A model generated the notes under the pieces. It saw only the letters and a list, made by a program, of their open reading frames with translations. It did not search any database and was not told the DNA's origin. From positions 434,001 through 498,000 of the forward strand of contig NZ_WJXZ01000004.1 in assembly GCF_009668025.1 (NCBI RefSeq): a DNA stretch of 64,000 nt. Direction: 5' to 3'. Of the stretch, positions 18,528 through 55,080 are shown piece by piece; the stretch's first letter is position 1, and every line of letters starts with the position of its first letter. The DNA is from Larkinella terrae. Lineage in GTDB: Bacteria > Bacteroidota > Bacteroidia > Cytophagales > Spirosomataceae. The translations under genes and the position numbers were made by a program.

Positions 18528-19469
18528 TCATTGGTGATCTTTCAGACTAAAATTAATTGGCAGGTTGTATTTCACCCGCACCGGTTTTCCATCCTGCGTT
18601 CCCGGTTTCCAGCGGGGCATGGCTTTGATCATCCGAACGGCTTCTTCGTCGGCACCAAAACCGATGCCTTTCAGAATCTGAATATCCTGCATGCTGCCGT
18701 CCGTGTTGATGACGAACGAGAGAAAGACCCTGCCGCTGACGTGGGCGCGGAGGGCGGGTTCCGGGTATTTCATGTTATTAATGATATAGGCTCCCAGAGC
18801 GGGCATGCCACCCGGGAATTCGGGATTTTTATCAACCACCGTAAAAATTTCACCGTTACCGTCATCCACCATTTTGCGGTCTAGCAAATCCCTGAACTTG
18901 GTGTTGTTGGCGTGTTTCGGAATTCGGGGCGAACCGGTCCAGTAGCTGGATTGCGTGCCGTCGTTGGGTTGGGCCAGCCGAACGTAAATAGCATCCTTGC
19001 CGTTGACCGGAACTTCGATACTCTGGTGGCCGACAAATGAAACCACCAGGGTTCCATTGGCGGGTACTTTGAGCTGGTATGCGCCGTTGGCGTCGGTGTT
19101 GGTGCCTGCCTGCGATCCTTTCAGGACAATATTGGCACCCGGTATCGGCGTATTGTTGGAGCTGAAAATCTGGCCGGAAAGCGTGATCGGTCCCTGACTG
19201 ACCACCTCTTTCTTCGACTGGTCTTCGCAGGCAGCCACAAAGACGAACAGACTGGCAATCAGCAGGGTGGCAAAACCGTACTTGGCGATGGCCCAGCGAC
19301 TGGTTTCTGATTTCTGCAACATGATAATCCGTTGTTTAAGGGTGGACGATTGAAAAAAAGGCGTGACAAATGCCGACTGTTTAGGGCCAAATGTGTAGGC
19401 AATCAATCGGTTATCGAATCGGCGTTGACAGAAGCGGAGCCGGGTGGAGAAGGGTTTTGTTGCTTTCAT
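18528..19469 (-). CDS. M56-tail-like protein with CarboxypepD-reg and TonB C-terminal domains
   Basis: 313 residues from ATG 19469, seven bases after the M56 gene ends. The N-terminus copies the end of an M56 sensor: 'FFQSSTLKQRIIMLQKSETS' then 'RWAIAKYGFATLLIASLFVF', a single membrane helix; the protease part is missing. Periplasmic part: a CarboxypepD-regulatory-like domain ('LSGQIFSSNNTPIPGANIVL', ~90-165) and a TonB C-terminal domain (~205-310) with 'FPGGMPALGAYIINNMKYPE' and 'RWKPGTQDGKPVRVKYNLPI'. Third gene of the blaI-M56 operon. Its neighbour has the same domains after the protease, so it arose by duplication of that tail. Perhaps a partner or decoy subunit of the sensor; that is inference. 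Confidence 0.85.
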   Translation of the reverse strand: MKATKPFSTRLRFCQRRFDNRLIAYTFGPKQSAFVTPFFQSSTLKQRIIMLQKSETSRWAIAKYGFATLLIASLFVFVAACEDQSKKEVVSQGPITLSGQIFSSNNTPIPGANIVLKGSQAGTNTDANGAYQLKVPANGTLVVSFVGHQSIEVPVNGKDAIYVRLAQPNDGTQSSYWTGSPRIPKHANNTKFRDLLDRKMVDDGNGEIFTVVDKNPEFPGGMPALGAYIINNMKYPEPALRAHVSGRVFLSFVINTDGSMQDIQILKGIGFGADEEAVRMIKAMPRWKPGTQDGKPVRVKYNLPINFSLKDHQ

Positions 19470-19476
19470 GACAACC

Positions 19477-21438
19477 TTAGTTTTTGGAAGTGGCTTTGAT
19501 GGTATACGTCGTCTTGGTGTGATCAACTTCAATCCGTTCCAGACTGCTGGGGTTCAGCTTCTGAAATTCTTCCCGGGTGATCGTTTTCCCATCCAGCACA
19601 AAATCAACGGCTTGGCTGCCAAAACCGGGCTGGGTCGTCGTCTGGATGGTTTCGCCCATGACTTTCTGTTTGGACGTCACCTCAATGACCCCGTTTTGCC
19701 CTTCGTTCCCGTAGATGGATGTTGCCGAAGCTCCTTTCAAAACGTTGATGGATGCGATGCTGTTGGGACCGATGGTGGTCGCCAGAGTCTCGGTAGAGGC
19801 CAGTTTTTTTCCGTCAACGATATACAGCGGTTTAGCATTCGGATCAGTACTCAACGGAGTGCGGATGATGACATTGGCCGGGCTCGAATTGTCCTGAATG
19901 ACCTGCCCACTTCGTTTGTCTTCCTTGCCTTCCAATTGAAACTGAATGGGCAGAACGTACTGCGTCATCACCGGTTTGCCATTCTGAATCCCCGGTTTCC
20001 AGCGCGGCATCTGGCTGACAACCCGCACCGCTTCTTCGTCGCAGCCCGCCCCGATGCCTTTTTTCACGCGTAGCCCGGTAATGTCGCCCTGCGAATCGAC
20101 CGTGAATTGCACGAAAACCGTCCCCTGCGTATGGGTCTGACGAGCCTCTTCCGGGTAGCGAACATTTGTGGCCAGGTATTGCCCGAGGGCGCTCATTCCC
20201 CCCGGATACTCCGGACTTTGCTCGACCACTGTAAATACGGGGCCGCTTGCGTTCGAAGGCGTTGTTGCTGAGGTTGTCGCCGGTTTCGGACTTACACCAT
20301 ACCCGACGACCACCACGGGTTGTAATGATTTTATGCTGGAGGTCAACGTAAAATCCAGGGTTTTGTTACCCGAAACTGCTTTTGTCTGGCTCTCGAAACC
20401 CACATAACTGGCAACGAGTCTGGCGTCGGTCGGCACGTTTTTTAGTTCGTAACGGCCCTGCGCATCGGTTTGAAAACCGTTCGTTCCGTTCAGAACGACT
20501 ACCGTTGCGCCCGCCAGCGGTTTTCCATTGGTATCGGTGACTTTTCCCGAAACCGTTATTTTCTCGTCAATAACCGGCGCAACCAATTGGGTGATTTCCT
20601 CGCGCGCCGTGGTCATCGCCAGCAGGCTCAGCAGCAACGGCAACACAAGTATGTATTTCCCCAACGCCCATCGGCTGGTGGCCCGGCGTTGCAGCATCAG
20701 GATCCGTTCCTTGATCAGGGAAGGCTTGAAAAAACCGTTGGTTAGTGTATTGGGCTGAATGCCAAAGGCGTAGTTCACCAGAAAAGTAGCGTATTCGTGT
20801 TTGTCCTCGGCCTGGGCGTCGGCCAGAAACTCGTGCACCTGCTGAATCGATCGTTTGTATAGAATCAACACCGGATTCATCCAGAACATCAGTTGAACGA
20901 CCTCCAGCAGCAACACATCAAAGCTGTGCCATTGCCGGATGTGAACCAGTTCGTGAGCCACGATCGGCGTGTTGCTGGTCTGCGCATCCCGGCGGCACAG
21001 CACCAGAAACCGGAAAAACGAGAAAGTCGGCACGCGCTCATCCGACGGCAGCACCAGCGTGTAATCGTCCACAGCGTGCCGCTCGGAGCGCCGGATCAGC
21101 CGGCCAATACCGGTCACCTGAAGCAGCAGCCGGAGCAGCAAAACCACCGCCACGGCGCCGTAAAACCAGTAACCGATCGTTTCCCAATCCGGTCCGGTGG
21201 GTTCCGGGGCCGTCACCGTGACGGGCAATGCGAAGACCATCACCGGCACGGGAATCGTTTCGACGGTTTCGGTCGGCAATTCGATGAAGGGCAATACCAA
21301 CGAAAGCAGAACCGACGCCAGCAGGTAAAGCCGGTTGAGCCGGAAAAACGTGTGTTTTCGCAGCCACAGCCAGTAACAGCCGTAGAACAGCACCAGAAAC
21401 AGGTTGGCTTTGAGCAGGTAATCGAGGGCTGCGTTCAT
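19477..21438 (-). CDS. M56 (BlaR1-type) metalloprotease with CarboxypepD-reg, TonB-C and plug-like domains
   Basis: 653 residues. N-terminal membrane M56 protease with three to four helices and zinc motif 'VAHELVHIRQWHS' (HExxH); a linker 'LIKERILMLQRRATSRWALG' and helix to ~275; then periplasmic CarboxypepD-reg-like (~295-360), TonB C-terminal (~400-505, 'YPGGMSALGQYLATNVRYPE'), and a segment like a TonB-receptor plug ('PLYIVDGKKL', 'SINVLKGASATSIYG', 'GQNGVIEVTSK'). BlaR1-type proteins sense a periplasmic signal and trigger cleavage of a BlaI repressor. The repressor gene overlaps it by four bases. The added outer-membrane-transport domains suggest sensing of envelope or TonB-machinery state rather than beta-lactam; that is inference. 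Confidence 0.9.
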   Translation of the reverse strand: MNAALDYLLKANLFLVLFYGCYWLWLRKHTFFRLNRLYLLASVLLSLVLPFIELPTETVETIPVPVMVFALPVTVTAPEPTGPDWETIGYWFYGAVAVVLLLRLLLQVTGIGRLIRRSERHAVDDYTLVLPSDERVPTFSFFRFLVLCRRDAQTSNTPIVAHELVHIRQWHSFDVLLLEVVQLMFWMNPVLILYKRSIQQVHEFLADAQAEDKHEYATFLVNYAFGIQPNTLTNGFFKPSLIKERILMLQRRATSRWALGKYILVLPLLLSLLAMTTAREEITQLVAPVIDEKITVSGKVTDTNGKPLAGATVVVLNGTNGFQTDAQGRYELKNVPTDARLVASYVGFESQTKAVSGNKTLDFTLTSSIKSLQPVVVVGYGVSPKPATTSATTPSNASGPVFTVVEQSPEYPGGMSALGQYLATNVRYPEEARQTHTQGTVFVQFTVDSQGDITGLRVKKGIGAGCDEEAVRVVSQMPRWKPGIQNGKPVMTQYVLPIQFQLEGKEDKRSGQVIQDNSSPANVIIRTPLSTDPNAKPLYIVDGKKLASTETLATTIGPNSIASINVLKGASATSIYGNEGQNGVIEVTSKQKVMGETIQTTTQPGFGSQAVDFVLDGKTITREEFQKLNPSSLERIEVDHTKTTYTIKATSKN

Positions 21439-21806
21439 GATTCTTTTTTACGGTTTAGGAGTTCGATGATTTCGTCGGTTTCTTTCAGGCTCAGATTGCG
21501 ATCCTTGACGAAAAACGATACCAGTTTTTTCAGCGAATTGTCGAAATAACCCGACATGAGCTGTTCCATTTCGAAGCGTTTGTATTCTTCCTCCGTAATC
21601 AGCGGGTAGTACTCGTGCGTTTTGCCGTAGGCGCGGTAGCCCACCAGACCCTTCTTTTCGAGGATGCGGATAATCGTCGAAACCGTGTTGTAGGCGGGTT
21701 TAGGTTCGGGAAGCTCCGTGAGAACATCCTTGACAAATCCCTTTTCGATTTTCCACAACACCTTCATGATTTCCTCTTCGGCATTGGTCAGTTCGCGAAC
21801 TTGCAT
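21435..21806 (-). CDS. blaI: BlaI/MecI/CopY-type repressor
   Basis: 123 residues: winged-helix DNA-binding part 1-75 ('MQVRELTNAEEEIMKVLWKI', 'YNTVSTIIRILEKKGLVGYR') and dimerisation helices to the end ('YFDNSLKKLVSFFVKDRNLS'). Such repressors bind palindromes as dimers and are inactivated by proteolysis when an M56 partner is activated. It leads the operon and overlaps the M56 gene by ATGA. Palindromic operator candidates lie just upstream, consistent with autoregulation. Confidence 0.93.
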   Translation of the reverse strand: MQVRELTNAEEEIMKVLWKIEKGFVKDVLTELPEPKPAYNTVSTIIRILEKKGLVGYRAYGKTHEYYPLITEEEYKRFEMEQLMSGYFDNSLKKLVSFFVKDRNLSLKETDEIIELLNRKKES

Positions 21807-21841
21807 ATCGGGTAAAAGTGGGATGACTGAAATGTTGAAAT

Positions 21842-21886
21842 CAAATATATGACTAATGATTTAGTTTTACAACTAATACATTAGTT
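21842..21886 (-). promoter_or_regulatory. blaI operon promoter with two operator palindromes
   Basis: Read on the minus strand, TATATTTG (21849-21842) matches the Bacteroidota -7 element. Upstream, ACTAA-N4-TTAGT (21852-21865) lies between the -7 and -33 positions and AACTAAT-N2-ATTAGTT (21871-21886) covers the -33 region. Both share ACTAA/TTAGT half-sites, as expected for an autoregulating BlaI dimer. Confidence 0.6.
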
Positions 21887-22042
21887 TTTTGTTTGGAAAA
21901 ATGTTTTTATTGGGTTATTTGGGGATGGCGTGACGACAAATGGCAACTAAAAACCGCTTCGATCTGGCTGAAGCGGACCTGCTGCAGATGGGTTTGGGTT
22001 AATCGATCAACTGGTTAAATCAGGAGAGGTGAACCGGGAATA

Positions 22043-23146
22043 TCACTTTACTTCCCCGGCGACCGGTTTTTGGCCTGCTTTCACCCAGTTTCGCAACTGA
22101 TCGAAAACCGCTTCGGTCTGGCCGGGCGTAAACCGGCAATGGCCCTGTCCGTTCGTAAACTTCATGACAAAAAGCCGGTCGTTGCCCGCCTGACGGACAA
22201 TGGCGTCGTAAGCCGTTCCGTTTTCCGGCGGAATCAGTTCGTCGTAAGTCGTGTGAACCAGCAAAACCGGGTCGCTGATTTTACCACTGTAATACGTATA
22301 AGGGCCTAGAAATGACCGGGCTCTGGGCTGAGCCATTAGCCGAATGGCCCGGCGGTTGACGAGCGCGTCGTCCGGAAAACCGCTGTACAATGCGTTGGTA
22401 TTATCGAATGGATTTCCGCCCGCTTGCTGGCTGATGTCGCGGTAGATTTCCTGAAAAAACCAGAGAACGCTCGGCAGGTCTTTGTATTTGATGGCAAACC
22501 GCCGGGCAAACTGCTGCCCGGTCAGCGAATCGATTGCGAGTTTCTGCGCGATACTTTCTCCCGAAATTGGTTTTGCGGTTCCGTTGGCGAGTTTTTCCAG
22601 CGTCAGCGTATTAGGAAAAAGCGCGTCGAATGTGACCAGCATCTCAAACAAATGCCCCTGAAGAAATTGGGATATGTGCTCCGAAACGGGGCAGAACGGC
22701 AAAGCGCCCTGGTAATGTTGCGGATATTTTTCGATGGTTGCCAGCGTGATCATGCCACCCATCGAATGACCGGTAATGAACGTAGTGTCCGGCTGGCCGT
22801 ATTTTTTGACGAAATATTGCCGCAAGGCTTCCGTATCGTCAACGCCCTCGGAAACCGCCCAACCCTGCCGCCGGTAAGCCGATTGCGCCACGGCAAATCC
22901 TTTTTTCAGGAAAGGAGTCATCCATCCGCCACTCAAAGGACCATGTTTACTACCGATGGTTTCATAGCCGTGGGCGTACAGGAGTAATCGTTTTGGCCCA
23001 CCGGCCTGGTTCCAGTTGGCGGGAAAATCGATCCGGTAGCGGGCCTGACCGATGATTCCGGTATCGGCACTTGCCACCGACGACGACTGGCCCGCTGCGG
23101 TCAGCACGCTTAGGAAAAAGACGAAAAAGGGAATAAGTCGGGTCAT
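22043..23146 (-). CDS. exported alpha/beta hydrolase
   Basis: 367 residues with a Sec signal peptide ('...FFLSVLTAAGQ'). Alpha/beta-hydrolase fold: oxyanion 'LLLYAHGYE', nucleophile elbow 'GHSMGG', acid in 'VHTTYDELIPP', and base His in 'GQGHCRF'. A large insertion between the nucleophile and the acid forms a helical cap. Likely an esterase or prolyl-peptidase-like enzyme acting in the periplasm. Single gene, divergent from the LLM oxidoreductase. Substrate unknown. Confidence 0.87.
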   Translation of the reverse strand: MTRLIPFFVFFLSVLTAAGQSSSVASADTGIIGQARYRIDFPANWNQAGGPKRLLLYAHGYETIGSKHGPLSGGWMTPFLKKGFAVAQSAYRRQGWAVSEGVDDTEALRQYFVKKYGQPDTTFITGHSMGGMITLATIEKYPQHYQGALPFCPVSEHISQFLQGHLFEMLVTFDALFPNTLTLEKLANGTAKPISGESIAQKLAIDSLTGQQFARRFAIKYKDLPSVLWFFQEIYRDISQQAGGNPFDNTNALYSGFPDDALVNRRAIRLMAQPRARSFLGPYTYYSGKISDPVLLVHTTYDELIPPENGTAYDAIVRQAGNDRLFVMKFTNGQGHCRFTPGQTEAVFDQLRNWVKAGQKPVAGEVK

Positions 23147-23285
23147 GGTTCAGGCTGAAAATAAACGGAATACGCAACCGAGTTAGCGCAATAGATCGAA
23201 AAAACCTAACGCCTTTCCCGAAAACCGTGCCGAGTTACACCGTTTTATTCCAACCAGCCCGGCACCTTTTTCCGGTTTTATTGTT

Positions 23286-23303
23286 GTTCTATAACAATAG
23301 AAC
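23286..23303. promoter_or_regulatory. operator-like palindrome upstream of LLM gene
   Basis: GTTCTAT-AACA-ATAGAAC, perfect 7-bp arms, 26 bases before the ATG of the LLM oxidoreductase, in the divergent gap with the hydrolase gene. A repressor-sized dyad; no regulator gene adjoins. Confidence 0.45.
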
Positions 23304-23328
23304 TATTGCGTGATAATCGGAATCAGAA

Positions 23329-24339
23329 ATGAAGTTAAGTGTTTTAGATCAGTCGCCGATTCGGAAAGGCAGCACCGCCCGCGAAGCGTTGCAGGAAACC
23401 GTCGCACTGGCCAAATGGACTGAAGAATTGGGCTACACCCGGTTTTGGGTGGCCGAACACCACAATGTTACTTCGTTAGCCGGAACGACGCCGGAAATAT
23501 TAATCGCTCACCTGGCCGGACAAACGAACTCCATTCGCGTGGGCTCGGGCGGGGTGATGCTGCCGCACTACAGCGCGTTGAAAGTGGCCGAAAATTTTCG
23601 GATGCTGGAAGCGCTTTTCCCCGGCCGCATCGACCTCGGCATGGGCCGCGCCCCCGGTGGCGACCGCGTTACGGCCAGCCTGCTGAACCCGACCAATACG
23701 TTTAGCGAACAGGATCTGGTGCAGCAACTCTTTGATCTACAGAATTATCTGAATGATCGCTACGCGCCGGGCAGCGCTCAGGCGCAGGTACGGGCCATGC
23801 CGGTTCCGCCATCCGTGCCGGAGCAGTGGGTGCTGAGCTCTACGGGTCATAGCGGTTTGCTGGCGGCCCATTTTGGCATGGGATTTTCCTTCGCGCATTT
23901 CATCAATCCGCACGGCGGACCCGAAGCCGTGCAGCATTACCGGAGCCGGTTTCAGCCCTCCGAGAACCTGGAAGAGCCGCAGGTCAACGTTGCGTTTTTC
24001 GTTTTCTGCTCCGACGACCCCGAAGTGGTCCAGCGGCAACAGGCGATGGTCGACTACCGGTTTTTACAGTATGAACTTCGGGGGAGAGTGAATCCGTTCG
24101 ACTACAACGATCTGAAAACCGTCTCGTATTCGCCCGCCGAAGAAGCGCGGATTCAGCACAATCGGCAGCGGATGATTATGGGTAGTTCGGAGGAAGTGAA
24201 AAAGCAACTGCTTAAAATGGCCGATCAGTACGAAGTCGATGAACTGATGCTGGTCAATGTGGCCTCGGAGTTTGAAGAGCGCCTGGAATCCTACCGACTG
24301 CTGGCGGAGGTGTTTGAGTTGAAGGGCGTCATTGCCTGA
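23329..24339 (+). CDS. LLM-class flavin-dependent oxidoreductase
   Basis: 336 residues, luciferase-like monooxygenase fold of the MsnO8-like branch: 'MKLSVLDQSPIRKGSTAREA' at the N-terminus, 'RFWVAEHHNVTSLAGTTPEI', 'IRVGSGGVMLPHYSALKVAE', and 'FPGRIDLGMGRAPGGD'. Members use FMNH2 for two-electron oxidations or dealkylations; the substrate is rarely known. Cytoplasmic, single gene. A palindrome upstream suggests control by a dimeric regulator encoded elsewhere. Confidence 0.93.
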   Translation: MKLSVLDQSPIRKGSTAREALQETVALAKWTEELGYTRFWVAEHHNVTSLAGTTPEILIAHLAGQTNSIRVGSGGVMLPHYSALKVAENFRMLEALFPGRIDLGMGRAPGGDRVTASLLNPTNTFSEQDLVQQLFDLQNYLNDRYAPGSAQAQVRAMPVPPSVPEQWVLSSTGHSGLLAAHFGMGFSFAHFINPHGGPEAVQHYRSRFQPSENLEEPQVNVAFFVFCSDDPEVVQRQQAMVDYRFLQYELRGRVNPFDYNDLKTVSYSPAEEARIQHNRQRMIMGSSEEVKKQLLKMADQYEVDELMLVNVASEFEERLESYRLLAEVFELKGVIA

Positions 24340-24350
24340 CGGTGGTCCCC

Positions 24351-24440
24351 ACTTCGTTATTCGGTGTTCGTTATTCAATATTATTAGGAGTTTGTAAACC
24401 AAATATCGAATAATGAATAACGAACACCGAATAACGAAGT
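24351..24440. terminator. perfect 27-bp inverted repeat (convergent junction)
   Basis: Arms 24351-24377 and 24414-24440 are exact complements built from TTCGTTATTCGGTG-type words. It lies between converging genes and probably stops both transcripts. Confidence 0.8.
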
Positions 24441-24464
24441 AGAATCTTAAACGAGAATCATAAC

Positions 24465-25742
24465 CTACTTCTTCTTATACGCAATCCGGAAAATGGTTCC
24501 GTTGAGATCGTCGGAGACGTACAGCGAGCCATCGGTTCCCTGCGCCAGACCACAGGGGCGGTGCTGAACGGGGCCGGTTGGTTTGGCGAGATCGATGCCG
24601 GCAAAATTGTCGGCGAAAATCTCCCACGGTCCCGACGGTTTTCCGTTTTTAAACGGCACAAACGCTACCATATACCCTTTCTGCAATTCGGCCGACTGGC
24701 TGTGGAACGCCACGAACGCGCCATTGCGGTATTTTTCGGGAAACATCGTTCCGGTGTAAAACAACAAACCGTTCGGAGCCAGGTGCGCCGGAAACGCCAC
24801 CACCGGATTCATCGCTTTTTCGCCACCGGTTTTTTTGCCATCGCCACCGTATTCCGGGGCAAGAATCTTCTTCTTCTGAATGTGGTCGTAATAGACATAC
24901 GGCCAGCCGCCGTCCGCGCCTTTTTTCACTTCGTACATGGTTTCCGCCGGTAATTCCGCGCTTTGCTTGGGCGTATAATATTCCGGATAAAAATCGTGGA
25001 ACTTACCGCGACCGTGCTGCACGACGAACAACGAGTTGGTTTTGGTATTCCAGTCCAGCCCGACCACGTTTTTCAAACCGGTGGCAAACCGCACCCCGTC
25101 GTTGTAGGATTGGTTGAGCCGGTTGGTATGAAACTGCCAGATTCCAGCGGCTGAATCCAGCAAGGGGCAGGGCATCAGTCCTTTACCAGTTCCGGCCTGG
25201 CGGCAGGCGTCGTTGTCTGACGCGATATTGACGTAAATCATCGACTGATTATCGACCGCAATGGACTTGGATTGGTCGCGCTCTTTCAGCCGCAGTCCTT
25301 CCACGATTTTTTCGGGCTGGTCGGGCTGAATCACTTCGCCTTTGTCATTCAGCTGATAGCGGTAAACGCCACTGTTGGACGACGCGTAGAGGTAATCGTT
25401 TTTGATAAATATGCCCGTTCCGGGGTAATCACCAAAACCGGTCTGCTCGTCGATCACCCCGTCTTTGTTGGTGTCGCGCAGTCGGTAAATGCCTTTTCCG
25501 TCTTTCAGTTTGGCCAGTTTGACGTAGATATCGCCATTCTTGCTAACGGCCATGTGTCGGGCCGCGCCGATATCGGTGGCCAGAATGGAAGCCGAAAAAC
25601 CGGCCGGAAGTTTAATGGCCGACGGCTCGACGGTTTTGTTTTTTTTCTCCGCAGCCGTGGGCGTTTCGCCGGTAGCCCAAACGGTATGGAAGCCCGCCAG
25701 TGTACCTACCAGGCAGATTGTTCGGATAAATGTTTTTTTCAT
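24465..25742 (-). CDS. exported PQQ-type sugar/sorbosone dehydrogenase-like beta-propeller
   Basis: 425 residues with a signal peptide (to about 'VWATGE'). The beta-propeller resembles soluble glucose/sorbosone dehydrogenases: 'GDIYVKLAKLKDGKGIYRLR', a calcium-like 'DTNKDGVID' loop, 'GLKNVVGLDWNTKTNSLFVV', 'KKGADGGWPYVYYD', 'HLAPNGLLFYTGTMFPEKYR', and the closing 'HRPCGLAQGTDGSLYVSDDL'. No cytochrome c domain follows, unlike many relatives, so electrons would have to go to a separate acceptor. Periplasmic. Cofactor and substrate not proven. Confidence 0.85.
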   Translation of the reverse strand: MKKTFIRTICLVGTLAGFHTVWATGETPTAAEKKNKTVEPSAIKLPAGFSASILATDIGAARHMAVSKNGDIYVKLAKLKDGKGIYRLRDTNKDGVIDEQTGFGDYPGTGIFIKNDYLYASSNSGVYRYQLNDKGEVIQPDQPEKIVEGLRLKERDQSKSIAVDNQSMIYVNIASDNDACRQAGTGKGLMPCPLLDSAAGIWQFHTNRLNQSYNDGVRFATGLKNVVGLDWNTKTNSLFVVQHGRGKFHDFYPEYYTPKQSAELPAETMYEVKKGADGGWPYVYYDHIQKKKILAPEYGGDGKKTGGEKAMNPVVAFPAHLAPNGLLFYTGTMFPEKYRNGAFVAFHSQSAELQKGYMVAFVPFKNGKPSGPWEIFADNFAGIDLAKPTGPVQHRPCGLAQGTDGSLYVSDDLNGTIFRIAYKKK

Positions 25743-25844
25743 TGCAGGGTTTAGTGATTAAATCGGGAACCGAGGGCCTAAAGATTGCTATTTTCTGCGT
25801 ATTTTGGCAGAATAACCCGGTAAAATCATATTATTCCTAAAAAC

Positions 25845-27449: not shown

Positions 27450-27510
27450 GCTTCAAAATACGGAATTTTGCCCGATCGGCCAATACTGACCGGCCGGGCA
27501 AAACCATTTA

Positions 27511-28392: not shown

Positions 28393-28514
28393 ACGAATCA
28401 ATATTTGGTTGTGATTAACTACTGAACCAGCCTGGATTGACTGGCAGGCCAATATCCAGGCATTCTCCCGGCAAAAGTGCGGAATGTTCGGGCGGAAAAA
28501 GAGGACATTTGTCG

Positions 28515-45851: not shown

Positions 45852-45979
45852 GCTGCAAAGGTCCTGAACTACAGAATGCTATCCAAGCCGAAAGAGTTCA
45901 AAGTATAAAAACCGGTTGGTTCGTTACGTTAATCAGCGGGAAGTAATCAGAATAATGTCGGTTTGCGATCAAACTCTTT

Positions 45980-45987
45980 TACCTTTG
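45980..45987 (+). promoter_or_regulatory. candidate -7 box ahead of tag
   Basis: TACCTTTG agrees fully with TAnnTTTG, 46 bases before the tag ATG. The -33 position is not TTTG; the nearest TTTG is too close (14 bases). Confidence 0.35.
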
Positions 45988-46033
45988 GAACGATTCAGGA
46001 AAAGCGCCATTTACGTTCCCATCGCTAACAAAT

Positions 46034-46591: not shown

Positions 46592-46642
46592 AGGGGGCTA
46601 AAAAATCAGGTGTTTTTAGCCCCCTTTAGGGGGTTGGGCAAA
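46574..46642. terminator. inverted repeat, CCCCTAAAGGGG family copy 2
   Basis: Arms 46574-46604 and 46613-46642 are near-perfect complements with core CCCTAAAGGGGGCTAAAAA. It overlaps the end of tag by 18 bases. Nearly the same sequence as the element at 11616-11685. Confidence 0.8.
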
Positions 46643-46653
46643 ATTGTTGGTTC

Positions 46654-47688
<1,035 letters not shown>

Positions 47689-47705
47689 GAAGTAAAGGTA
47701 TACAA

Positions 47706-48410: not shown

Positions 48411-48584
48411 TCGGCAGGTGTAATTGGTGTAATTCTGACCCGAAGTTACGCGCTGTGTCAGCAATTTTACGAAGTTAACAGGATTATTAACAAAAAGATA
48501 ACACGAAATGACGGTAAATTGCGTTTCAGTAATCAGATAATAAACCGACAGAAAATTACGCCTGAGAAATTAGAATTGTCGCTC

Positions 48585-49430
48585 TCACTTCTTCCGAATC
48601 AAATACATCCTTCCCCGTTCGTTCGTCATGACCAGATCCGTGTTGTTCACAAACGTCAGCCCTTCGGTTTGGCCCCGCGGAATCCGCAGGCAGCGCGTCG
48701 GATGTTGAAAACTGATCCGGTCGGCTTTTTGCTCAAACAGAAAAATCTTGCCGTAGGTCAGCACCGCCAGCGTTTGGCCGTCGGGGCTGAGGGCCGCGTC
48801 AGTCACCATCGTTTTCAGAAAAACACTGTCGACCGGCAGCAGGGCGTAGTCACCGGCCCGGGCGGGAAGGCCGTACAGGTTCACAAATCGCCGGGGTTCC
48901 GAGCGGTTTTTCGACACGAGGAACAAACTGTCTTTTGCGGCAAAAAGGGCTTCACTGTCGAAATTACGCGTATCTTTCGATGCCGGATACGTTTTCTGAA
49001 GGGCGTAATGAAACGTAATCTCCTGAAAATCGTTAGGTTGATTAGGGTTGATCCGGTAAATCTCCAGCTGCCGTCGCGCGTTGGAATTGTTGCCGATGTC
49101 GCCGATGAACAAAACCGTCGAGTCCTGCTTCGTCAGGGCTTCCCAGTCCCGGTTTTTAAGCCTGGGCAAGGGCAGCGAATCGACCAGCGAACCGTTGCGG
49201 GCGACTTCGTAAAGCGTGGGGCGACCTCCGCTGTCGTTGTGCGTCCAGAACGTGTTGCGACCGGCGCGGTAGGTTAATCCCGAACTTTCGTTGACCACCG
49301 CTGTCAGCCGCCCGGTCCGCGAGACCTTGTACTGGGATCGCCCGCTGCGAAAACCGCTGCGTTTGTTCTCGCTGTGGCAGGTGCAAAGTGCGACTTTGAG
49401 CGAAAACAAGAAGAGAAGAAAGGAGTTCAT
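48585..49430 (-). CDS. exported beta-propeller-like protein of unknown function
   Basis: 281 residues beginning with a signal segment that ends near 'VALCTCHS', where a lipobox-like Cys is possible. The mature part has repeated propeller-like strands: 'NESSGLTYRAGRNTFWTHND', 'FIGDIGNNSNARRQLEIYRI', 'NFDSEALFAAKDSLFLVSKN', 'TDAALSPDGQTLAVLTYGKI', 'GQTEGLTFVNNTDLVMTNER'. Reminiscent of SdiA-regulated or esterase-like propellers but I cannot assign it. Promoter region shared with the divergent AI-2E permease gene and occupied by a long inverted repeat. Confidence 0.65.
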   Translation of the reverse strand: MNSFLLFLFSLKVALCTCHSENKRSGFRSGRSQYKVSRTGRLTAVVNESSGLTYRAGRNTFWTHNDSGGRPTLYEVARNGSLVDSLPLPRLKNRDWEALTKQDSTVLFIGDIGNNSNARRQLEIYRINPNQPNDFQEITFHYALQKTYPASKDTRNFDSEALFAAKDSLFLVSKNRSEPRRFVNLYGLPARAGDYALLPVDSVFLKTMVTDAALSPDGQTLAVLTYGKIFLFEQKADRISFQHPTRCLRIPRGQTEGLTFVNNTDLVMTNERGRMYLIRKK

Positions 49431-49450
49431 TCAGTGTACATTCTAGAATA

Positions 49451-49570
49451 GTTTTCGGTATACGGTTTTTGCCGGGCCGACGTTTCGGTAGCTGACGCAT
49501 TCTTAAATACCTAATTGAATGAGCCGCGAATACAGAATGCGTCAGCCACTGAAAACCGTATACCGAAAAC
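49451..49570. repeat. compound inverted repeat in a divergent promoter region
   Basis: Outer arms 49451-49469 and 49552-49570 are exact complements (19 bp); inner arms 49491-49503 and 49534-49546 also match exactly (13 bp). Unlike most others here it lies between two diverging genes, so it cannot be a normal terminator. Confidence 0.85.
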
Positions 49571-49583
49571 CGTAACCAAAAAT

Positions 49584-50720
49584 ATGGAAAACAAAGTACC
49601 CGAAGTCAATTTGCCATCGTACGTTCGGTTTGCCTGCATCATGATTGTGCTGACGATCCTGGTTTACTGGTTGTCGGCTATGCAGGAACTAATCGTGCCG
49701 CTGGTTTTCTCAATTCTGTTTGCGATGATTCTTTACCCAATCAACCACCGGCTCGAACGCTGGCGGGTGCCGCGCGTACCTGCTATTCTGATCTGTCTGG
49801 TGATTCTGATCGGCTTTTTTTACCTGCTTTTTTACCTGATTTCCCTGCAAATTTCCAACTTTACCAGTGAAGCACCCCGTCTGCTGGAACGCGGCAATCA
49901 GATTCTGGATAAACTACAGACGTTCGGGGAGGACCGGTTTCACATCGAGCGGTCGAAAATGGTTTCCGAAGCCCGGAGTTACGTCAATAATCTGATTCGC
50001 GAAAGCGGTTCTTTTCTGACTTCCACGCTGCTGGCGACCACTAATACCCTCTCGACGATCTCGATTGTGCCGCTGTATATCTTCTTCCTGATGCTGTACC
50101 GCGATTTCTTCCGGTCGTTTTTTTATAAGGTTTTTACCAGCACGAAACGGGCCAAAATCGACGTTGTTTTTGCCCGGATTTACACCGTGGTCAAGGATTA
50201 CCTGGTTGGGCTGGTGCTGGTGATTAGTATCGTGGGCGTACTGAACACCGTCGGGCTGCTGATTCTAGGGATCGATTATGCGGTTTTCTTTGGCTTTCTG
50301 GGCGCATTCATGATTCTGATTCCGTACATCGGTATCCTGATTGGCTCGCTGCTTCCGGCTTTGTTCACGCTGCTGACCCACGAAAATCCGCTGGTGGCCC
50401 TGGGGGTAATCGGCGTCTTTTCGTTCGTGCAGATTCTGGAAGGTAACTTCATTACGCCCTACATCGTTGGCTCGAAAGTCAGTATCAATCCGCTGGCGGC
50501 CATTATTGTGTTGTTACTCTGGGGGCAGCTCTGGGGTGTTACCGGCCTGATTCTGGCCCTGCCCATGACGGCGATCCTCAAAGTGATCTTCGACGCCGTC
50601 GAACCGCTGAAACCGTATGGCTACCTGCTGGGTGAAGCCGAGCGTCAGAAAACAAAACCGCTGAATGTGAAAGAGTTTACGGACAAGCTACCGAAGAAAG
50701 TAAAGGATTTGGTAGATTGA
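49584..50720 (+). CDS. AI-2E/PerM family membrane transporter
   Basis: 378 residues from ATG 49584; the preceding frame belongs to the repeat. About eight helices in the PerM layout: 'FACIMIVLTILVYWLSAMQE', a long periplasmic loop with helices ('RLLERGNQILDKLQTFGEDR'), and the signature 'GSLLPALFTLLTHENPLVAL' with 'FITPYIVGSKVSINPLAAII'. The family includes AI-2 exporter TqsA and Na/H antiporter-like proteins; substrate unknown. Confidence 0.9.
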   Translation: MENKVPEVNLPSYVRFACIMIVLTILVYWLSAMQELIVPLVFSILFAMILYPINHRLERWRVPRVPAILICLVILIGFFYLLFYLISLQISNFTSEAPRLLERGNQILDKLQTFGEDRFHIERSKMVSEARSYVNNLIRESGSFLTSTLLATTNTLSTISIVPLYIFFLMLYRDFFRSFFYKVFTSTKRAKIDVVFARIYTVVKDYLVGLVLVISIVGVLNTVGLLILGIDYAVFFGFLGAFMILIPYIGILIGSLLPALFTLLTHENPLVALGVIGVFSFVQILEGNFITPYIVGSKVSINPLAAIIVLLLWGQLWGVTGLILALPMTAILKVIFDAVEPLKPYGYLLGEAERQKTKPLNVKEFTDKLPKKVKDLVD

Positions 50721-50729
50721 GGGGTAAAT

Positions 50730-51359
50730 CTAAAATTTCAGCGGATCAAGATTTTTAAAATGGCCGTTCATTTTGATGCGGTCTTTGGTCCGTTCCATTT
50801 CCGAAACCACCGGCAAGACGCGGTTGAGGTGGCGGATCAGAAACTGCTGGCGTTTGTTTTCGGTCTCCATCGTGAGCAGTTCGTATTCTTCCTCAACGGA
50901 TAAGCCAATTTTGTGCGCTACCCGAAACGACAGCAGGGGCGACTCGTCGTCGATTTCCGATTTGAGCTGGAGCAAATGATAAAGCCGAACCAGTTTGACG
51001 GTTAATTCATCGAGGTGATCGCCCATTTCGGGTTCGGTTTCCACTACCTCAACCTGACCTCCCGCATACAGCTTGCCCGGCGATGGATTTTCGAACCTGG
51101 CAATCCGGAATACCCGCAGGCCCTTCGACTTGATATCCATCCGGCCGTCTTCGTAGCGTTTGTGCAGGGTCGTCACGCTCATTTCGGTACCGTAGCCGGG
51201 CAATTTGTTGTTGATAAACGCCGGAATACCAAACATACGGCCTTCTTCCAAGCATTCGGTAATCAGCTGCCGGTAGCGCTCTTCGAAAATGTGCAGATTC
51301 AGGTCTTCGTTGGGATAAACTACCAGGTTAAGCGGGAACAGGGGCAGATAAATTTCCAT
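50730..51359 (-). CDS. LON substrate-binding-domain protein
   Basis: 209 residues containing only the Lon N-terminal (LAN/PUA-like) domain: 'MEIYLPLFPLNLVVYPNEDL' and 'LHIFEERYRQLITECLEEGR', then 'VEVVETEPEMGDHLDELTVK' and a helical C-terminus. No protease or ATPase part. Probably a stand-alone adaptor or protein-binding module. It is one base downstream of gldH on the same strand, so they are one transcript. Confidence 0.9.
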   Translation of the reverse strand: MEIYLPLFPLNLVVYPNEDLNLHIFEERYRQLITECLEEGRMFGIPAFINNKLPGYGTEMSVTTLHKRYEDGRMDIKSKGLRVFRIARFENPSPGKLYAGGQVEVVETEPEMGDHLDELTVKLVRLYHLLQLKSEIDDESPLLSFRVAHKIGLSVEEEYELLTMETENKRQQFLIRHLNRVLPVVSEMERTKDRIKMNGHFKNLDPLKF

Positions 51360-51360
51360 A

Positions 51361-51834
51361 CTACAAATCTTTTTCCACCGTCACGCCCACGCTGTAAATC
51401 TCCGGCAGGGGGTTCTGGCGCATGTATTGCCGCAATCGGACGGTGTATTTGCCGCTGTGCGAAAACCGGTATTTTTTCATCATGCTGATCCGATGGTCGA
51501 AAAGATCGCCCAGGCCATCGCCGTACGGTTTTCCGGTTTTCGGGTCGAGCAGGGTCAGTTCGTCCTGTTTCGATTCCAGCATTTTTCCGTCGCTGTCGAG
51601 CAGATAACGACGAATGTATAGGTTGTAGTACGGATACGAAACGCTGTTGCGGATGTTGTAATAAATGGAATACGTGGCCGTGGTGTCCGTAATTTCAAAG
51701 GTAAACTCCGGCGTATTGTTGATGTACCACGTGCCGCCTTTGATATCGTCGATGCCCTTGTAAACCGCATTTTCGTCGCAGCCAGCGAGCAGCAGCCACA
51801 AACCGGCCAGTAATCCCACCTGTAATTTTTTCAT
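51361..51834 (-). CDS. gldH: gliding motility lipoprotein GldH
   Basis: 157 residues from ATG 51834; an ATG three codons earlier (51843) is also possible. Signal peptide with lipobox 'LLAGC' and Cys19. The GldH pattern is clear: 'GGTWYINNTPEFTFEITDTT', 'SYPYYNLYIRRYLLDSDGKM', 'DPKTGKPYGDGLGDLFDHRI'. GldH is required for gliding in Flavobacterium, with GldB/J/K-N, and is lost with motility in some lineages. No other gld gene is in the window. Operon with the LON-domain gene. Confidence 0.88.
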   Translation of the reverse strand: MKKLQVGLLAGLWLLLAGCDENAVYKGIDDIKGGTWYINNTPEFTFEITDTTATYSIYYNIRNSVSYPYYNLYIRRYLLDSDGKMLESKQDELTLLDPKTGKPYGDGLGDLFDHRISMMKKYRFSHSGKYTVRLRQYMRQNPLPEIYSVGVTVEKDL

Positions 51835-51920
51835 GTAGCGCATAACCCGTCTTTGTACAAAACTACGACCGACGCGCGTAGATTCAAATGAAACCGGACG
51901 CGGATTCGCTACAATAAAAA

Positions 51921-51964
51921 ACTATGGAAATAGTTTGCAAACTACGCAAATCGTTTTATCTTGG
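51921..51964 (+). promoter_or_regulatory. second blaI operon promoter with operator palindromes
   Basis: TTTG (51934-51937), exactly 19 bases, then TATCTTGG (51957-51964, seven of eight to TAnnTTTG). The -33 TTTG lies within the perfect 14-bp palindrome TAGTTTGCAAACTA (51931-51944); ACTAT-N4-ATAGT (51921-51934) abuts it. A dimeric BlaI here would block RNA polymerase. Confidence 0.65.
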
Positions 51965-52033
51965 TCATTAATGCGCCGGGCACATCAGCCCCCCGGTTTT
52001 TTCCGGGTCGAGTAGTAACCTAAAACAAGCACG

Positions 52034-52396
52034 ATGGAAAAGTTAACTGCCAAGGAAGAAGAGATCATGCAGGTATTATGGAAAGTGGAACAGGCTTTTG
52101 TGAAAGACATGCTGGCCTATTTTACGGACCCGCCACTTCATTACAATACCGTTTCAACCATCATCCGAAACCTGGAAGAAAAGGGGTATGTGGGCCACCA
52201 GGCCTACGGCAACACGCACGAATATTATCCGATTATTACGAAAGAAGACTACCAGAACCGCTTTGTTCTGAAGAAGGTTGTGTCTGATTATTTCGATGAT
52301 TCCTACAAGAATCTGGTGAGCTACTTTGCCAAAAAGGACAAAATTTCGGTCGACGAGCTGAAAGAAATTATCACAATGATCGAGAAAGGGCAGTAG
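52034..52396 (+). CDS. blaI: BlaI/MecI-type repressor, second copy
   Basis: 120 residues with the same winged helix as the first copy ('MEKLTAKEEEIMQVLWKVEQ', 'YNTVSTIIRNLEEKGYVGHQ', 'EYYPIITKEDYQ') and a dimerisation half. Clearly paralogous to the repressor at 21435. Two bases separate its stop from the M56 gene. Probably autoregulated through the palindromes upstream. Confidence 0.93.
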   Translation: MEKLTAKEEEIMQVLWKVEQAFVKDMLAYFTDPPLHYNTVSTIIRNLEEKGYVGHQAYGNTHEYYPIITKEDYQNRFVLKKVVSDYFDDSYKNLVSYFAKKDKISVDELKEIITMIEKGQ

Positions 52397-52398
52397 CC

Positions 52399-54108
52399 AT
52401 GAGCCTCCTGATTTACCTCCTGCAAGCGGGCCTGATTCTGGCGGTGCTGACGCTCTGCTACCAGCTTTTGCTCCGCCGGGCCACCTGGTTCGGGCTGAAC
52501 CGGTATTTGCTCGGGCTGAACATTCTGCTGGCGCTGGTGCTTCCGTTGGTCGAATTGCCCGACTTCCGGCCCGCGCCCGTTCGCAACCTGGTTCAGCAAA
52601 CCGTTCCGAATTTACGGGTGCTGGACTGGTCGAAGCTGAAGGCGATACCGGCCAGCCCTTCGGTTCAAAAACCGCAGAAACAGGCACCCGATGCATCCCT
52701 GAGTCCAGCGTCGGAAGCAGTTTCGCTCAACTGGCGGGAGGTGTTGTTGTGGGCGTATTTGGCAGGGGTAATCTTTCTGGGCGGGCGGCTGTTCATTCAG
52801 CTTGTGTCACTTGTTCGTCTGATAATTCGGTCGGAACGATCGTGGCAGGAAAACGTCTGGCTGGTGGTGAATGCGGAAGTCAGCGCCCCCTTTTCGTTTT
52901 TTAAATGGGTGATTCTGAACCCGGACTTGTACGAACCCGACGAGTTCGATCAGATTCTGGCGCACGAACGCGTTCACTGCCGGCAATGGCACAGCCTGGA
53001 TATGCTGCTGGCGGAATTGCTGCGGATCGTCTTCTGGTTTAACCCGTTCGCGTGGTGGCACCAGCATCTGGTTCAGGAAAATCTGGAGTATCTCGTGGAC
53101 CGGGAAGTGCTGAAGGAAGGCGTCGAAAAAAAATCGTACCAATATTACCTCCTGAAAGCCAGCCTTTCCGGCGAAAATTCAATTCCGGTTCGTCCCGTGA
53201 CCAATTCGTTTAACCAGCCGCAATTGAAAAGCCGGATTTCGATGATGAATCGGCCCCGCTCGAACGGCGGCTGGCAACTGTACCTGTTTTTTTGCCTCAT
53301 CGTCACCCTTTCCTGCTCGGCTTTTACGGTTCCCAAAACCGTTTCGCGTTACGTCGTTGACAATCGGTATGGCGTTTTCGGGCTGATTACGGCGGTGACG
53401 ACGACGCAGGATCTGGAAGTAATGCAGGCGGTTTTTGCCGATAAAGGTCTTGGTATGCGCTACCAGGCCGACATCAATCCGTCGGGCCGGATCGACCATA
53501 TTTCGGTCGAAGTGAAAAACGGCAGTCAGGTGGTGGCGCGGGCGTTGAATCAGATTCCGCCGTTTGTGATTACGGCGGTCCGGCCCGATGCCTCGAAGCC
53601 GTTCGTGGTGCAGACCGCCCGCCGGGTGATGCAGTTGCCCGACACCCTGTTCTCGATCTGGGAACACGAAAAACCGGTGGTGGTGCTCAACGGCCGGGTC
53701 CTGAATCTGCGGCCGGGCCAGCCGTTCGGGTTCGGGTCCGTTTCGGATTACAAGCGAAACGTGCTGACATCGCAGGAAGCCGTGAAACGCTTCGGTAAAA
53801 CCGGACAATACGGTGCTACGACGATTGACGGAAAAATTCTGGATGCGGTTTTTGCCGCCAATCCGGACGTAATGGCGCTGGGCCGCCAGCTTCTATACAA
53901 AGGAACGCTCGCGCCGGATCAGCTCACGCAGTTTACATTCCTGATCGACGGAAAACCGGGTTCATACCAGGAGTTTCGGGCATTGCGGGCCGACGACAGG
54001 ATTTCGGTAGCGGTTTTTGATAAAAATTCGGCGGGGAGTGTCAAACCCGCTTTTACGACCAAAGGGCTGGTGGCGGTGACGACCAAACGGCAGTTACTGG
54101 CTGAGTAA
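52399..54108 (+). CDS. M56 (BlaR1-type) metalloprotease sensor, second copy
   Basis: 569 residues. Membrane helices in the first 150 residues, zinc motif 'LAHERVHCRQWHSLDMLLAE' (HExxH) near 195, a linker 'QLKSRISMMNRPRSNGGWQL', a helix (~293-312), then a ~255-residue periplasmic region. That has a beta-alpha domain ('DLEVMQAVFADKGLGMRYQA') and a short plug-like stretch ('EAVKRFGKTGQYGATTIDGK'), but no TonB-C domain, unlike the first copy. Cleaves BlaI on a signal in BlaR1/MecR1. The next gene repeats its tail. Ligand unknown. Confidence 0.88.
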   Translation: MSLLIYLLQAGLILAVLTLCYQLLLRRATWFGLNRYLLGLNILLALVLPLVELPDFRPAPVRNLVQQTVPNLRVLDWSKLKAIPASPSVQKPQKQAPDASLSPASEAVSLNWREVLLWAYLAGVIFLGGRLFIQLVSLVRLIIRSERSWQENVWLVVNAEVSAPFSFFKWVILNPDLYEPDEFDQILAHERVHCRQWHSLDMLLAELLRIVFWFNPFAWWHQHLVQENLEYLVDREVLKEGVEKKSYQYYLLKASLSGENSIPVRPVTNSFNQPQLKSRISMMNRPRSNGGWQLYLFFCLIVTLSCSAFTVPKTVSRYVVDNRYGVFGLITAVTTTQDLEVMQAVFADKGLGMRYQADINPSGRIDHISVEVKNGSQVVARALNQIPPFVITAVRPDASKPFVVQTARRVMQLPDTLFSIWEHEKPVVVLNGRVLNLRPGQPFGFGSVSDYKRNVLTSQEAVKRFGKTGQYGATTIDGKILDAVFAANPDVMALGRQLLYKGTLAPDQLTQFTFLIDGKPGSYQEFRALRADDRISVAVFDKNSAGSVKPAFTTKGLVAVTTKRQLLAE

Positions 54109-54129
54109 ACCTTTTCCTGAACACACCCT

Positions 54130-55080
54130 ATGAAATCGAAAATGCGAGCTCCGCGACGCCCGGAGCAGTTCCGTTTCGTCAATCGGTTCGGTTCCCATTT
54201 TCTGAAAAACCGCATTCAGATGATGAATCAGGCGGCCAAATCCCGCCGTTCGTGGGCGGTCTATGCCCTCCTGTTTGCAGTTACCGGTTTGGTCACGACG
54301 GTGGCTGCGGTAGAGAAACCAGTTGAAGGGTTGGCAGGAAAGTCGGTTATTTCTGAGAATGAATCGGAGGTCTCCAAATTGCCAGTTGCTGAAATTGAGA
54401 AAAAAAGCCGATATGTAGTGCAGAAAGGCGATTCGCTCTATTGGGCAATTACGCCCAAAATGTCGTTTAACGAACTGACGAAACTGAAGCAGACTATTGA
54501 AAAATTGACCCAATACACGGTTGGTTTTACACAGATCAAATTTGATCCTTTTCAGTTATACATCGACATCATTGACGTAAGCGTTTATGCAAAAAGTGGC
54601 GGTAGTGGCTCAACCTCCGATGGTGATGAAAATGATGGGCCGATCAAGTCAATTGGCGGTTACTTAACTCATAAAGGGGATCTGAGTATTGGCGAATTGG
54701 ATGACCAGGATAATATGCCTGCTGTACTGAAACAGCTTGTGGAAAATGATGAAAAAGCCGTTGCCAAGTTGATTGCCGAAAAACGGATTGATTATTTTAT
54801 TGAGAAAAATAAGAAAAACGGAGCAGGCGGCAACGCAACGTTAAAAGGCCAATGGTTGCGGGATAATCCCGGCAGAAAAAATGAAAATTTCGGAGTGTTT
54901 ATCAATACCGAAAACCGCCTTCAATTCTATGATCCGGAAAAGGTTACAGTGATGATCGACGGAAAAGAGGTAAAAGCTGAACAAGTAACATCCCTTAATC
55001 CGAAGCAGCTTCACACGGTTATTGTAATGGATTCGTATCCGGACCGCAAACGCTATGTCCAGCTCTTCCTGAATCAGTGA
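54130..55080 (+). CDS. M56-tail-like single-pass protein
   Basis: 316 residues. The N-terminus copies the M56 juncture: 'FVNRFGSHFLKNRIQMMNQA', then helix 'WAVYALLFAVTGLVTTVAAV', with no protease part. The periplasmic region holds 'MSFNELTKLKQTIEKLTQYT' and 'IIDVSVYAKSG', matching the domain after the helix in the M56 gene before it. The rest has an acidic Gly/Ser linker and no known motif. The second half of the gene is AT-richer than its neighbours. Third gene of the operon, as at the other blaI locus. Function unknown; a sensor accessory subunit is my inference. Confidence 0.7.
   Translation: MKSKMRAPRRPEQFRFVNRFGSHFLKNRIQMMNQAAKSRRSWAVYALLFAVTGLVTTVAAVEKPVEGLAGKSVISENESEVSKLPVAEIEKKSRYVVQKGDSLYWAITPKMSFNELTKLKQTIEKLTQYTVGFTQIKFDPFQLYIDIIDVSVYAKSGGSGSTSDGDENDGPIKSIGGYLTHKGDLSIGELDDQDNMPAVLKQLVENDEKAVAKLIAEKRIDYFIEKNKKNGAGGNATLKGQWLRDNPGRKNENFGVFINTENRLQFYDPEKVTVMIDGKEVKAEQVTSLNPKQLHTVIVMDSYPDRKRYVQLFLNQ

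What the first reader, a model, noticed from the sequence alone, without database searches (positions are those of the whole stretch)
18528..55080. Two BlaI-M56 operons each followed by a protease-less copy of the M56 tail
At 18528-21806 and 52034-55080 the order is repressor, M56 sensor, then a third protein. In all four sensor/third-gene products a short K-x-R-I-x-M motif ('IKERILMLQ', 'LKQRIIMLQ', 'LKSRISMMN', 'LKNRIQMMN') precedes one membrane helix and a periplasmic domain. The third gene thus keeps the M56 juncture, helix and ectodomain but lacks the HExxH protease. The domains after the helix match within each operon (TonB-C at one locus, an unnamed beta-alpha domain at the other), so each tail protein derives from its own neighbour. 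Such a partner could pair with the sensor, compete for ligand, or be its substrate. Known BlaR1/MecR1 systems lack it.
Basis: partly seen in the sequence, partly recalled or inferred. Interest (0 to 1): 0.68.

Follow-up and report, generated by a model that had tools for sequence, protein, structure and literature searches.

The report
Detachable sensor halves for BlaR1-like receptors
Two gene-switch operons in a soil bacterium carry, beside the usual membrane protease, separate proteins that look like that protease's own detachable sensor half, which suggests that one protease can be controlled by interchangeable sensor subunits.

Summary
In detail: both loci read BlaI, M56 protease, then a protease-less tail. 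The K-x-R-I-x-M motif has a precise identity: profile alignment to S. aureus BlaR1 puts its Arg on Arg294 of the domain-swapped helix alpha9, and the conserved Phe before it on Phe284, P1' of the autocleavage site. A tail is thus 'autocleavage loop + alpha9 + last membrane helix + ectodomain', the unit BlaR1 swaps between subunits. Among 70 distinct tails (35 genomes, 9 genera, one family) Phe and Arg are kept in 69 of 69 that have the site and P4 is Phe or Leu; in the window's two tail families no ectodomain window is as conserved as this segment. A second ectodomain type occurs fused to the protease (12 loci) and as separate genes (17), with at least 5 supported switches. In both genomes held of another genus the receptor is naturally split: the protease stops before the loop and the tail supplies loop, Arg and sensor. 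Best explanation: tails are trans-acting receptor subunits that plug into M56. Whether they activate, inhibit or are cleaved is not shown. Tail A did not arise from its present neighbour within the genus. New variant of BlaI-M56 systems.

The parts
21435..21806 (-). BlaI-type repressor, operon A
   Evidence: Penicillinase_R E 7e-32
19477..21438 (-). M56 protease-receptor A (653 aa): protease, loop, alpha9, last membrane helix, SusC-NTE-like + TonB_C + Plug-like ectodomain
   Evidence: model matches BlaR1 8exr and SusC NTE 9hfj
20941..20955 (-). HExxH of M56 A (residues 162-166)
   Evidence: His162, Glu163, His166 invariant in 16-row alignment A3
20731..20745 (-). P4-P1' of the putative autocleavage site of M56 A (LTNGF, Phe236 = BlaR1 Phe284)
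20695..20712 (-). alpha9 motif KERILM of M56 A (Arg245 = BlaR1 Arg294)
18528..19469 (-). tail A (313 aa): loop, alpha9, membrane helix, CarboxypepD_reg, TonB_C; no protease
19356..19370 (-). P4-P1' of the site in tail A (FVTPF)
19320..19337 (-). alpha9 motif KQRIIM in tail A
21852..21885 (.). paired ACTA-N6-TAGT dyads, putative BlaI operator of operon A
52034..52396 (+). BlaI-type repressor, operon B
   Evidence: Penicillinase_R E 1e-28; aligns to MecI 1sd6
52399..54108 (+). M56 protease-receptor B (569 aa)
   Evidence: Peptidase_M56 E 2e-18
52963..52977 (+). HExxH of M56 B (residues 189-193)
53197..53211 (+). P4-P1' of the putative autocleavage site of M56 B (VTNSF)
53227..53244 (+). alpha9 motif KSRISM of M56 B
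54130..55080 (+). tail B (316 aa): loop, alpha9, membrane helix, ectodomain homologous to that of M56 B, no Pfam or NCBIfam family
54175..54189 (+). P4-P1' of the site in tail B (FVNRF); P4, P2 and P1' invariant in 13 aligned tails
54205..54222 (+). alpha9 motif KNRIQM in tail B
51921..51954 (.). paired ACTA-N6-T(A/C)GT dyads, putative BlaI operator of operon B

Best explanation
The tails are trans-acting receptor subunits of the neighbouring M56 protease. Each carries the part of a BlaR1-type receptor that BlaR1 swaps between its two subunits: the autocleavage loop, helix alpha9 with the Arg that reaches the partner's active site, the last membrane helix, and a periplasmic sensing domain. Inferred working: the tail inserts loop and alpha9 into the protease active site, as BlaR1's own C-terminal half does, forming a hetero-complex. 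While the loop (intact or cleaved) sits in the cleft, BlaI cannot enter. A signal on the tail ectodomain moves the membrane helix and frees or completes the site, BlaI is cut, and the operon, tails included, is derepressed. In g18 the tail is the only source of loop, alpha9 and sensor in the operon. Shown by sequence: homology of the unit, position of the break, constraint, linkage, fused/separate interchange, conserved operator-like dyads. Inferred: physical complex, occupancy of the cleft, direction of the effect, BlaI cleavage. Ligand unknown; for A it may concern TonB / SusC-type transport, because the ectodomain resembles a SusC N-terminal domain plus a TonB C-terminal domain.
For: (1) Profile of 16 M56 cores hits BlaR1 8exp at E 2.6e-14; counting along the printed alignment, the invariant Phe falls on Phe284 and the motif Arg on Arg294 (same Phe and Arg). 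In BlaR1 the scissile bond is Ser283-Phe284, P4/P2/P1' are the anchors, alpha9-alpha10 are domain-swapped, Arg294' meets Asp246 of the partner, and the loop blocks BlaI (PMC9834060). (2) 70 distinct tails: Phe 69/69, Arg 69/69, P4 Phe 59 + Leu 10, P2 Asn 58/Thr 9/His 2, while P1 varies; one tail (L049) lacks the site. (3) Loop+alpha9 dN/dS 0.045 (tail A, 8 genomes), 0.094 (tail B, 7), 0.125 (B2, 6) against 0.212, 0.197, 0.205 in ectodomains; the 12 residues before it in tail B 0.74. 0 of 208 (A) and 0 of 230 (B) ectodomain windows are as low. (4) Natural split in both genomes held of g18: M56 ends after alpha8, 23 bp, tail begins MYSFTNHF; both parts under selection (pairwise dN/dS 0.11, 0.07). 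(5) B2 unit fused in 12 and separate in 17 of 30 loci (1 broken); tree needs 9 switches, 5 forced by supported branches. (6) 59 of 70 tails directly follow an M56 or a chain of tails behind one, 56 of these 59 with BlaI upstream on the same strand; the other 11 lie in such clusters behind an inserted gene, broken gene, in-frame stop or contig end.
Against: No interaction, cleavage or expression was measured and no complex could be modelled. The tail A model is poor (pLDDT 49) and the M56 A model is low-confidence exactly in the loop and alpha9 (pLDDT under 50 for 221-291). In B2 the loop is not exceptional: 73 of 243 ectodomain windows have pN as low; likewise 19 of 232 in M56 B. Many tails were found with a model of the stub, so invariance is partly ascertained, and the rows are related. 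Full-length searches also found ectodomain relatives without the stub in such operons (L050, L051, L052, L062), so not every partner keeps it. One B2 copy (L231) away from its operon has a decayed site. Most M56 next to tails have their own loop and ectodomain, so tails are not always needed. dS is above 1 in many comparisons, and the B2 tree has two long rows.
Confidence: 0.6

Rival explanations
1. The tail is a trans substrate or decoy: M56 cuts it at the conserved site, so it competes with BlaI, times the response, or releases its ectodomain from the membrane.
For: P4, P2 and P1' are kept while P1 varies, as expected of a bound substrate. BlaI B aligns to MecI so that 'LVSY-F' falls on residues 98-102, and in 105 BlaI of these loci that P4 is Leu in 87 and that P1' is Phe in 93. 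BlaR1 cleaves its loop at Ser283-Phe284 and BlaI at Asn101-Phe102 (PMC9834060).
Against: A mere substrate would not need the alpha9 Arg, which is kept in 69/69, nor explain fused/separate interchange and the g18 split. Cleavage may still occur in the subunit model.
Confidence: 0.2
2. Tail A is a TonB-like energy transducer or periplasmic effector switched on by the operon, and the N-terminal stub is only a membrane anchor.
For: Tail A has TonB_C (E 9e-20) and CarboxypepD_reg; stub-less TonB_C proteins with ordinary-looking signal peptides occur in such operons; about half of the tails (34/70) have a lipobox-like Cys after the helix, as do 50/137 M56.
Against: Tails B and B2 have no TonB_C; an anchor does not explain the strongest constraint on loop and alpha9 in A and B, the active-site identity of the conserved residues, or the g18 split.
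Confidence: 0.12
3. The tails are decaying remnants of duplicated M56 genes.
For: One tail in G023 (L049) is a recent, site-less copy of an M56 of its operon; G003 tail B is frameshifted; broken tails occur in g51 (L197, L199).
Against: dN/dS about 0.2 over whole tails and 0.045-0.125 in the stub; conservation in 9 genera; chains of 2 to 4 tails with near-identical stubs in g51.
Confidence: 0.03

Closest known systems
BlaR1-BlaI / MecR1-MecI of staphylococci and Bacillus licheniformis
   Same: BlaI repressor next to an M56 receptor-protease with HExxH and ExxxD; autocleavage-site Phe and alpha9 Arg align; operator-like dyads before the repressor
   Different: No penicillin-binding sensor domain found; the loop-alpha9-helix-sensor unit also occurs as separate proteins, singly or in chains, and in g18 as the only copy in the operon
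MecR2, third gene of the mec locus (PMC3406092, abstract seen)
   Same: A third component that modulates a BlaI/MecI-M56 switch
   Different: By the abstract a MecI-binding anti-repressor; not a membrane copy of the receptor half
TonB C-terminal domain and SusC N-terminal domain
   Same: M56 A ectodomain model matches SusC NTE 9hfj (TM-score by target length 0.93) and TonB 6i97_D (0.74); tail A has the same Pfam domains
   Different: Here attached to an M56 loop-alpha9-helix stub

Membership tests
BlaI-BlaR1/MecR1 regulatory systems | BlaI/MecI-type repressor adjacent to the receptor gene | tested here: met
BlaI-BlaR1/MecR1 regulatory systems | M56 gluzincin with HExxH and ExxxD | tested here: met
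BlaI-BlaR1/MecR1 regulatory systems | autocleavage-site P1' Phe and alpha9 Arg | tested here: met
   alignment only; cleavage not tested
BlaI-BlaR1/MecR1 regulatory systems | class-D-beta-lactamase-like penicillin sensor | tested here: not met
   no such Pfam domain in either M56; NCBIfam blaR1/mecR1 hits are weak, lie in the protease part and are far below cut-off
BlaI-BlaR1/MecR1 regulatory systems | protease cleaves BlaI | not testable with these tools
   P1' Phe at the position aligned with MecI Phe102 is present in 93 of 105 BlaI
Peptidase M56 (for the tail itself) | protease domain with HExxH | tested here: not met
   no PF05569 hit and no HExxH in either window tail
TonB family protein | TonB C-terminal domain | tested here: inconclusive
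   met by tail A, not by tails B and B2
TonB family protein | energises outer-membrane transport | not testable with these tools
   no call
MecR2 anti-repressors | homology to MecR2 | not tested
   MecR2 sequence not fetched

The most novel reading that the evidence does not exclude
A many-sensors, one-protease receptor: a single M56 protease is served by several exchangeable membrane subunits that each plug their autocleavage loop and alpha9 into its active site, so that gene chains of tails (2 to 4 behind one M56 in several g51 genomes) widen the set of signals read by one BlaI switch; in g18 the receptor has become an obligate two-gene complex, split at the loop where BlaR1 cuts itself.
Probability: 0.4. 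Interest if true: 0.85.

Novelty: new variant of a known kind. Interest (0 to 1): 0.7.

Why it matters
How a signal outside the cell frees the BlaR1 active site for BlaI, and what the autocleavage loop and domain swap are for, are debated questions in resistance biology. Here evolution has separated the two halves: loop, alpha9, membrane helix and sensor can be added, removed, mutated or exchanged without touching the protease. The g18 pair is a ready-made two-part system, from environmental bacteria, for testing the domain-swap model. It also suggests how one repressor-protease switch can gain new inputs by duplicating a sensor half.

Tried and rejected
Ordinary duplication remnant: rejected by purifying selection and conservation. 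Origin of tail A from its present neighbour within the genus: rejected by tree, with moderate support. Widespread in Bacteroidota: not found. In the order sample (59 genomes) I fetched 40 stretches, not every listed place: tails at 2 of 7 stretches of the window's family and 0 of 33 of other families. In the class sample (148 genomes) I opened all 29 matches outside the family that lie in open frames of up to 470 aa: 28 have HExxH before the stub and are full M56, the last (G119) holds no stub by my model; longer frames were not opened. In the family sample (150 genomes) the match list was cut, so 35 genomes with tails is a lower bound. Regulon by operator search: the double-dyad pattern, drawn from the two promoters themselves, is exact only there in 7.8 Mb; with up to 2 mismatches there are 14 matches against 19 of the control, so no further target is claimed; three one-mismatch places were looked at without a clear target. 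Tail A structure: too poor to search. PHROGs: one weak hit (E 0.0098) for tail B, none for tail A.

Rows dropped: dN/dS left out G007 tail A (diverged), G003 tail B (frameshifted), and G007 and G005 B2. The 70-tail count dropped L231 (E 0.0044, site decayed) and merged proteins with identical last 100 residues. In the B2 tree four distant g51 tails were kept because they share the C-terminal motif used for picking.

Literature: eight searches of the held open library; among the papers listed (the lists were cut) none is about protease-less M56 tails or split M56 receptors by title and abstract start. Subscription papers and preprints are not covered. Papers seen: PMC9834060 (abstract, parts 2 and 3, passages), PMC3406092 and PMC3356374 (outline and abstract), PMC6925264, PMC7593790 and PMC10470040 (passages), PMC12578637 and PMC7160235 (passages, irrelevant).
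Full report
The two operons are as described. Operon A on the minus strand is BlaI (21806-21435), M56 (21438-19477) and tail A (19469-18528); operon B on the plus strand is BlaI (52034-52396), M56 (52399-54108) and tail B (54130-55080). BlaI and M56 carry their Pfam domains; neither tail has an M56 domain. Tail A aligns to its M56 at 38% over 301 aa (E 3e-68). Tail B shows only a short pairwise match but full-length profile homology (E 5e-61 over 343 columns). The genome has six BlaI-M56 pairs; only these two have tails. The genus is very probably Larkinella (named relatives 80-85% identical to the M56 A core).

What the motif is. A profile of 16 M56 cores from these genomes matches S. aureus BlaR1 at E 2.6e-14, and single M56 B at E 0.005. 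Counting along the printed alignments, the invariant Phe upstream of K-x-R-I-x-M falls on BlaR1 Phe284 and the Arg of the motif on Arg294. In BlaR1 the scissile autocleavage bond is Ser283-Phe284; P4 Leu280, P2 His282 and P1' Phe284 anchor the loop in the active site; helices alpha9 and alpha10 that follow are swapped between the two subunits; Arg294 of one subunit meets Asp246 of the other; and loop and BlaI cannot occupy the cleft together (PMC9834060, parts 2 and 3 and passages). A tail is therefore the swapped unit plus a sensor domain, with 37 residues before P1' in tail A, 19 in tail B and 7 in the shortest.

Conservation. In 13 aligned tails of type B and its g51 relatives, P4 Phe16, P2 Asn18 and P1' Phe20 are all invariant while P3 and P1 vary. 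Over 70 distinct tails P1' is Phe in 69 of 69 with the site, P4 is Phe (59) or Leu (10), P2 is Asn (58), Thr (9) or His (2), and the alpha9 Arg is 69 of 69; in 137 M56 the Phe is 134 and the Arg 137. Some of this is ascertainment, since the stub model found many of them. Independent of that, within the genus loop+alpha9 has dN/dS 0.045 in tail A, 0.094 in tail B and 0.125 in B2, against 0.212, 0.197 and 0.205 in the ectodomains; the 12 residues before it in tail B have 0.74. No ectodomain window of tail A (0 of 208) or tail B (0 of 230) is as conserved; for B2 73 of 243 are, and for M56 B 19 of 232.

Distribution. Tails were seen in 35 genomes of 9 genera, all in the window's family: the 9 genomes of the genus that the searches drew, plus 26 others; in one of the 35 (G023) the tail lacks the site. 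This is a lower bound, since match lists were cut. Genus g51 has chains of 2 to 4 tails behind one M56, some broken, with near-identical N-termini and differing ectodomains. Of 70 tails 42 directly follow an M56 and 17 follow a chain of tails behind one (56 of these 59 have BlaI upstream on the same strand); the remaining 11 are in such clusters but behind an inserted gene (3), a broken M56 or tail (4), an in-frame stop (2) or a contig end (2). A sample of the order gave 0 tails at 33 stretches of other families. In a sample of 148 genomes of the class, all 29 matches outside the family in open frames of up to 470 aa were opened: 28 are full M56 and one holds no stub.

The natural split. A second tail type (B2, ending in SPFYSGDF) was traced with a full-length search of 150 genomes of the family: 38 matched and 30 loci were returned. 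In 12 loci the unit is fused to the protease in one reading frame; in 17 it is a separate gene; one is broken. In both genomes held of genus g18 the M56 ORF stops right after the helix aligned with alpha8 (...YQYSLLKVNL..., 261 and 257 aa), and 23 bp later the tail starts MYSFTNHF: Met, two residues, then P4 to P1'. Both halves are under purifying selection (pairwise dN/dS 0.11 and 0.07; dS above 1). There the protease has no alpha9 Arg, loop, last helix or sensor of its own. In G007 the M56 keeps loop and alpha9 but has lost helix and sensor, and is also followed by a B2 tail. A tree of the B2 ectodomain needs 9 switches between fused and separate, at least 5 on supported branches. The one B2 copy found about 15 kb from its operon (L231, G005) has a decayed site.

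Origin. In a quick tree of TonB_C-type ectodomains, tail A of eight genomes plus genus g26 lie together (88 for the union, 98 for the eight), apart from the M56 A clade, which likewise includes g26 (90). Tail A thus parted from M56 A before those genera did, with moderate support. Tails of g3 (L205, L206, L210) group with full second M56 proteins of Spirosoma loci (96). The tail of L049 is the closest relative of a full M56 in the same operon, two genes further on (99). Over the tree, tails and M56 need 8 changes, at least 4 forced.

Control and input. Paired ACTA-N6-TAGT dyads precede both BlaI genes and are conserved in the genus and in loci of g5, g18, g26 and g51; the double pattern is exact only at these two promoters in 7.8 Mb, but looser matches do not exceed the control. 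Autoregulation is likely, not shown. The ectodomain of M56 A resembles a SusC N-terminal domain and a TonB C-terminal domain (model of modest confidence), so the A signal may concern TonB-dependent uptake; B and B2 ectodomains match no Pfam or NCBIfam family above cut-off.

Conclusion. The evidence favours tails as trans-acting, exchangeable receptor subunits that dock by the same loop and helix with which BlaR1 occupies and completes its active site. Complex formation, direction of the effect and cleavage are not shown. It is a variant of BlaI-M56 systems, not a member of the beta-lactam-sensing ones, since no penicillin sensor was found.

Noticed in passing
51361-51843: The gene divergent from BlaI B is gldH (gliding motility lipoprotein, TIGR03511 E 6e-38); gldH also lies divergent from BlaI in L128, L138, L209 and L204 (g5, g18, g26), with operator-like dyads between in those looked at, so BlaI B may touch gldH.
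   Followed up: partly
L054 (G033) 6870-8777: M56 with one in-frame TAA between membrane helix and ectodomain, followed by two tails; possible stop mutation or another split.
   Followed up: partly
L100, L101, L104: A gene of about 1000 aa lies between tail B and the second tail B2 in three genomes of the genus; in L100 it is an M16 peptidase (PF05193, PF00675).
   Followed up: partly
L049, L050, L052 (G023, G024, G011): Operons with one BlaI and three to five full M56 genes in a row, plus TonB_C proteins with lipoprotein-like or secretion signals and no stub.
   Followed up: partly
tails and M56 generally; tail A residue 81: A lipobox-like Cys follows the membrane helix in 34 of 70 tails and 50 of 137 M56; if lipidated there, the sensor would be severed from the helix, recalling signal-peptidase cutting of BlaR1 at Gly331 (PMC9834060).
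   Followed up: partly
L101 5016-6109 (G003): Tail B is frameshifted in this genome while the second tail is intact.
   Followed up: no
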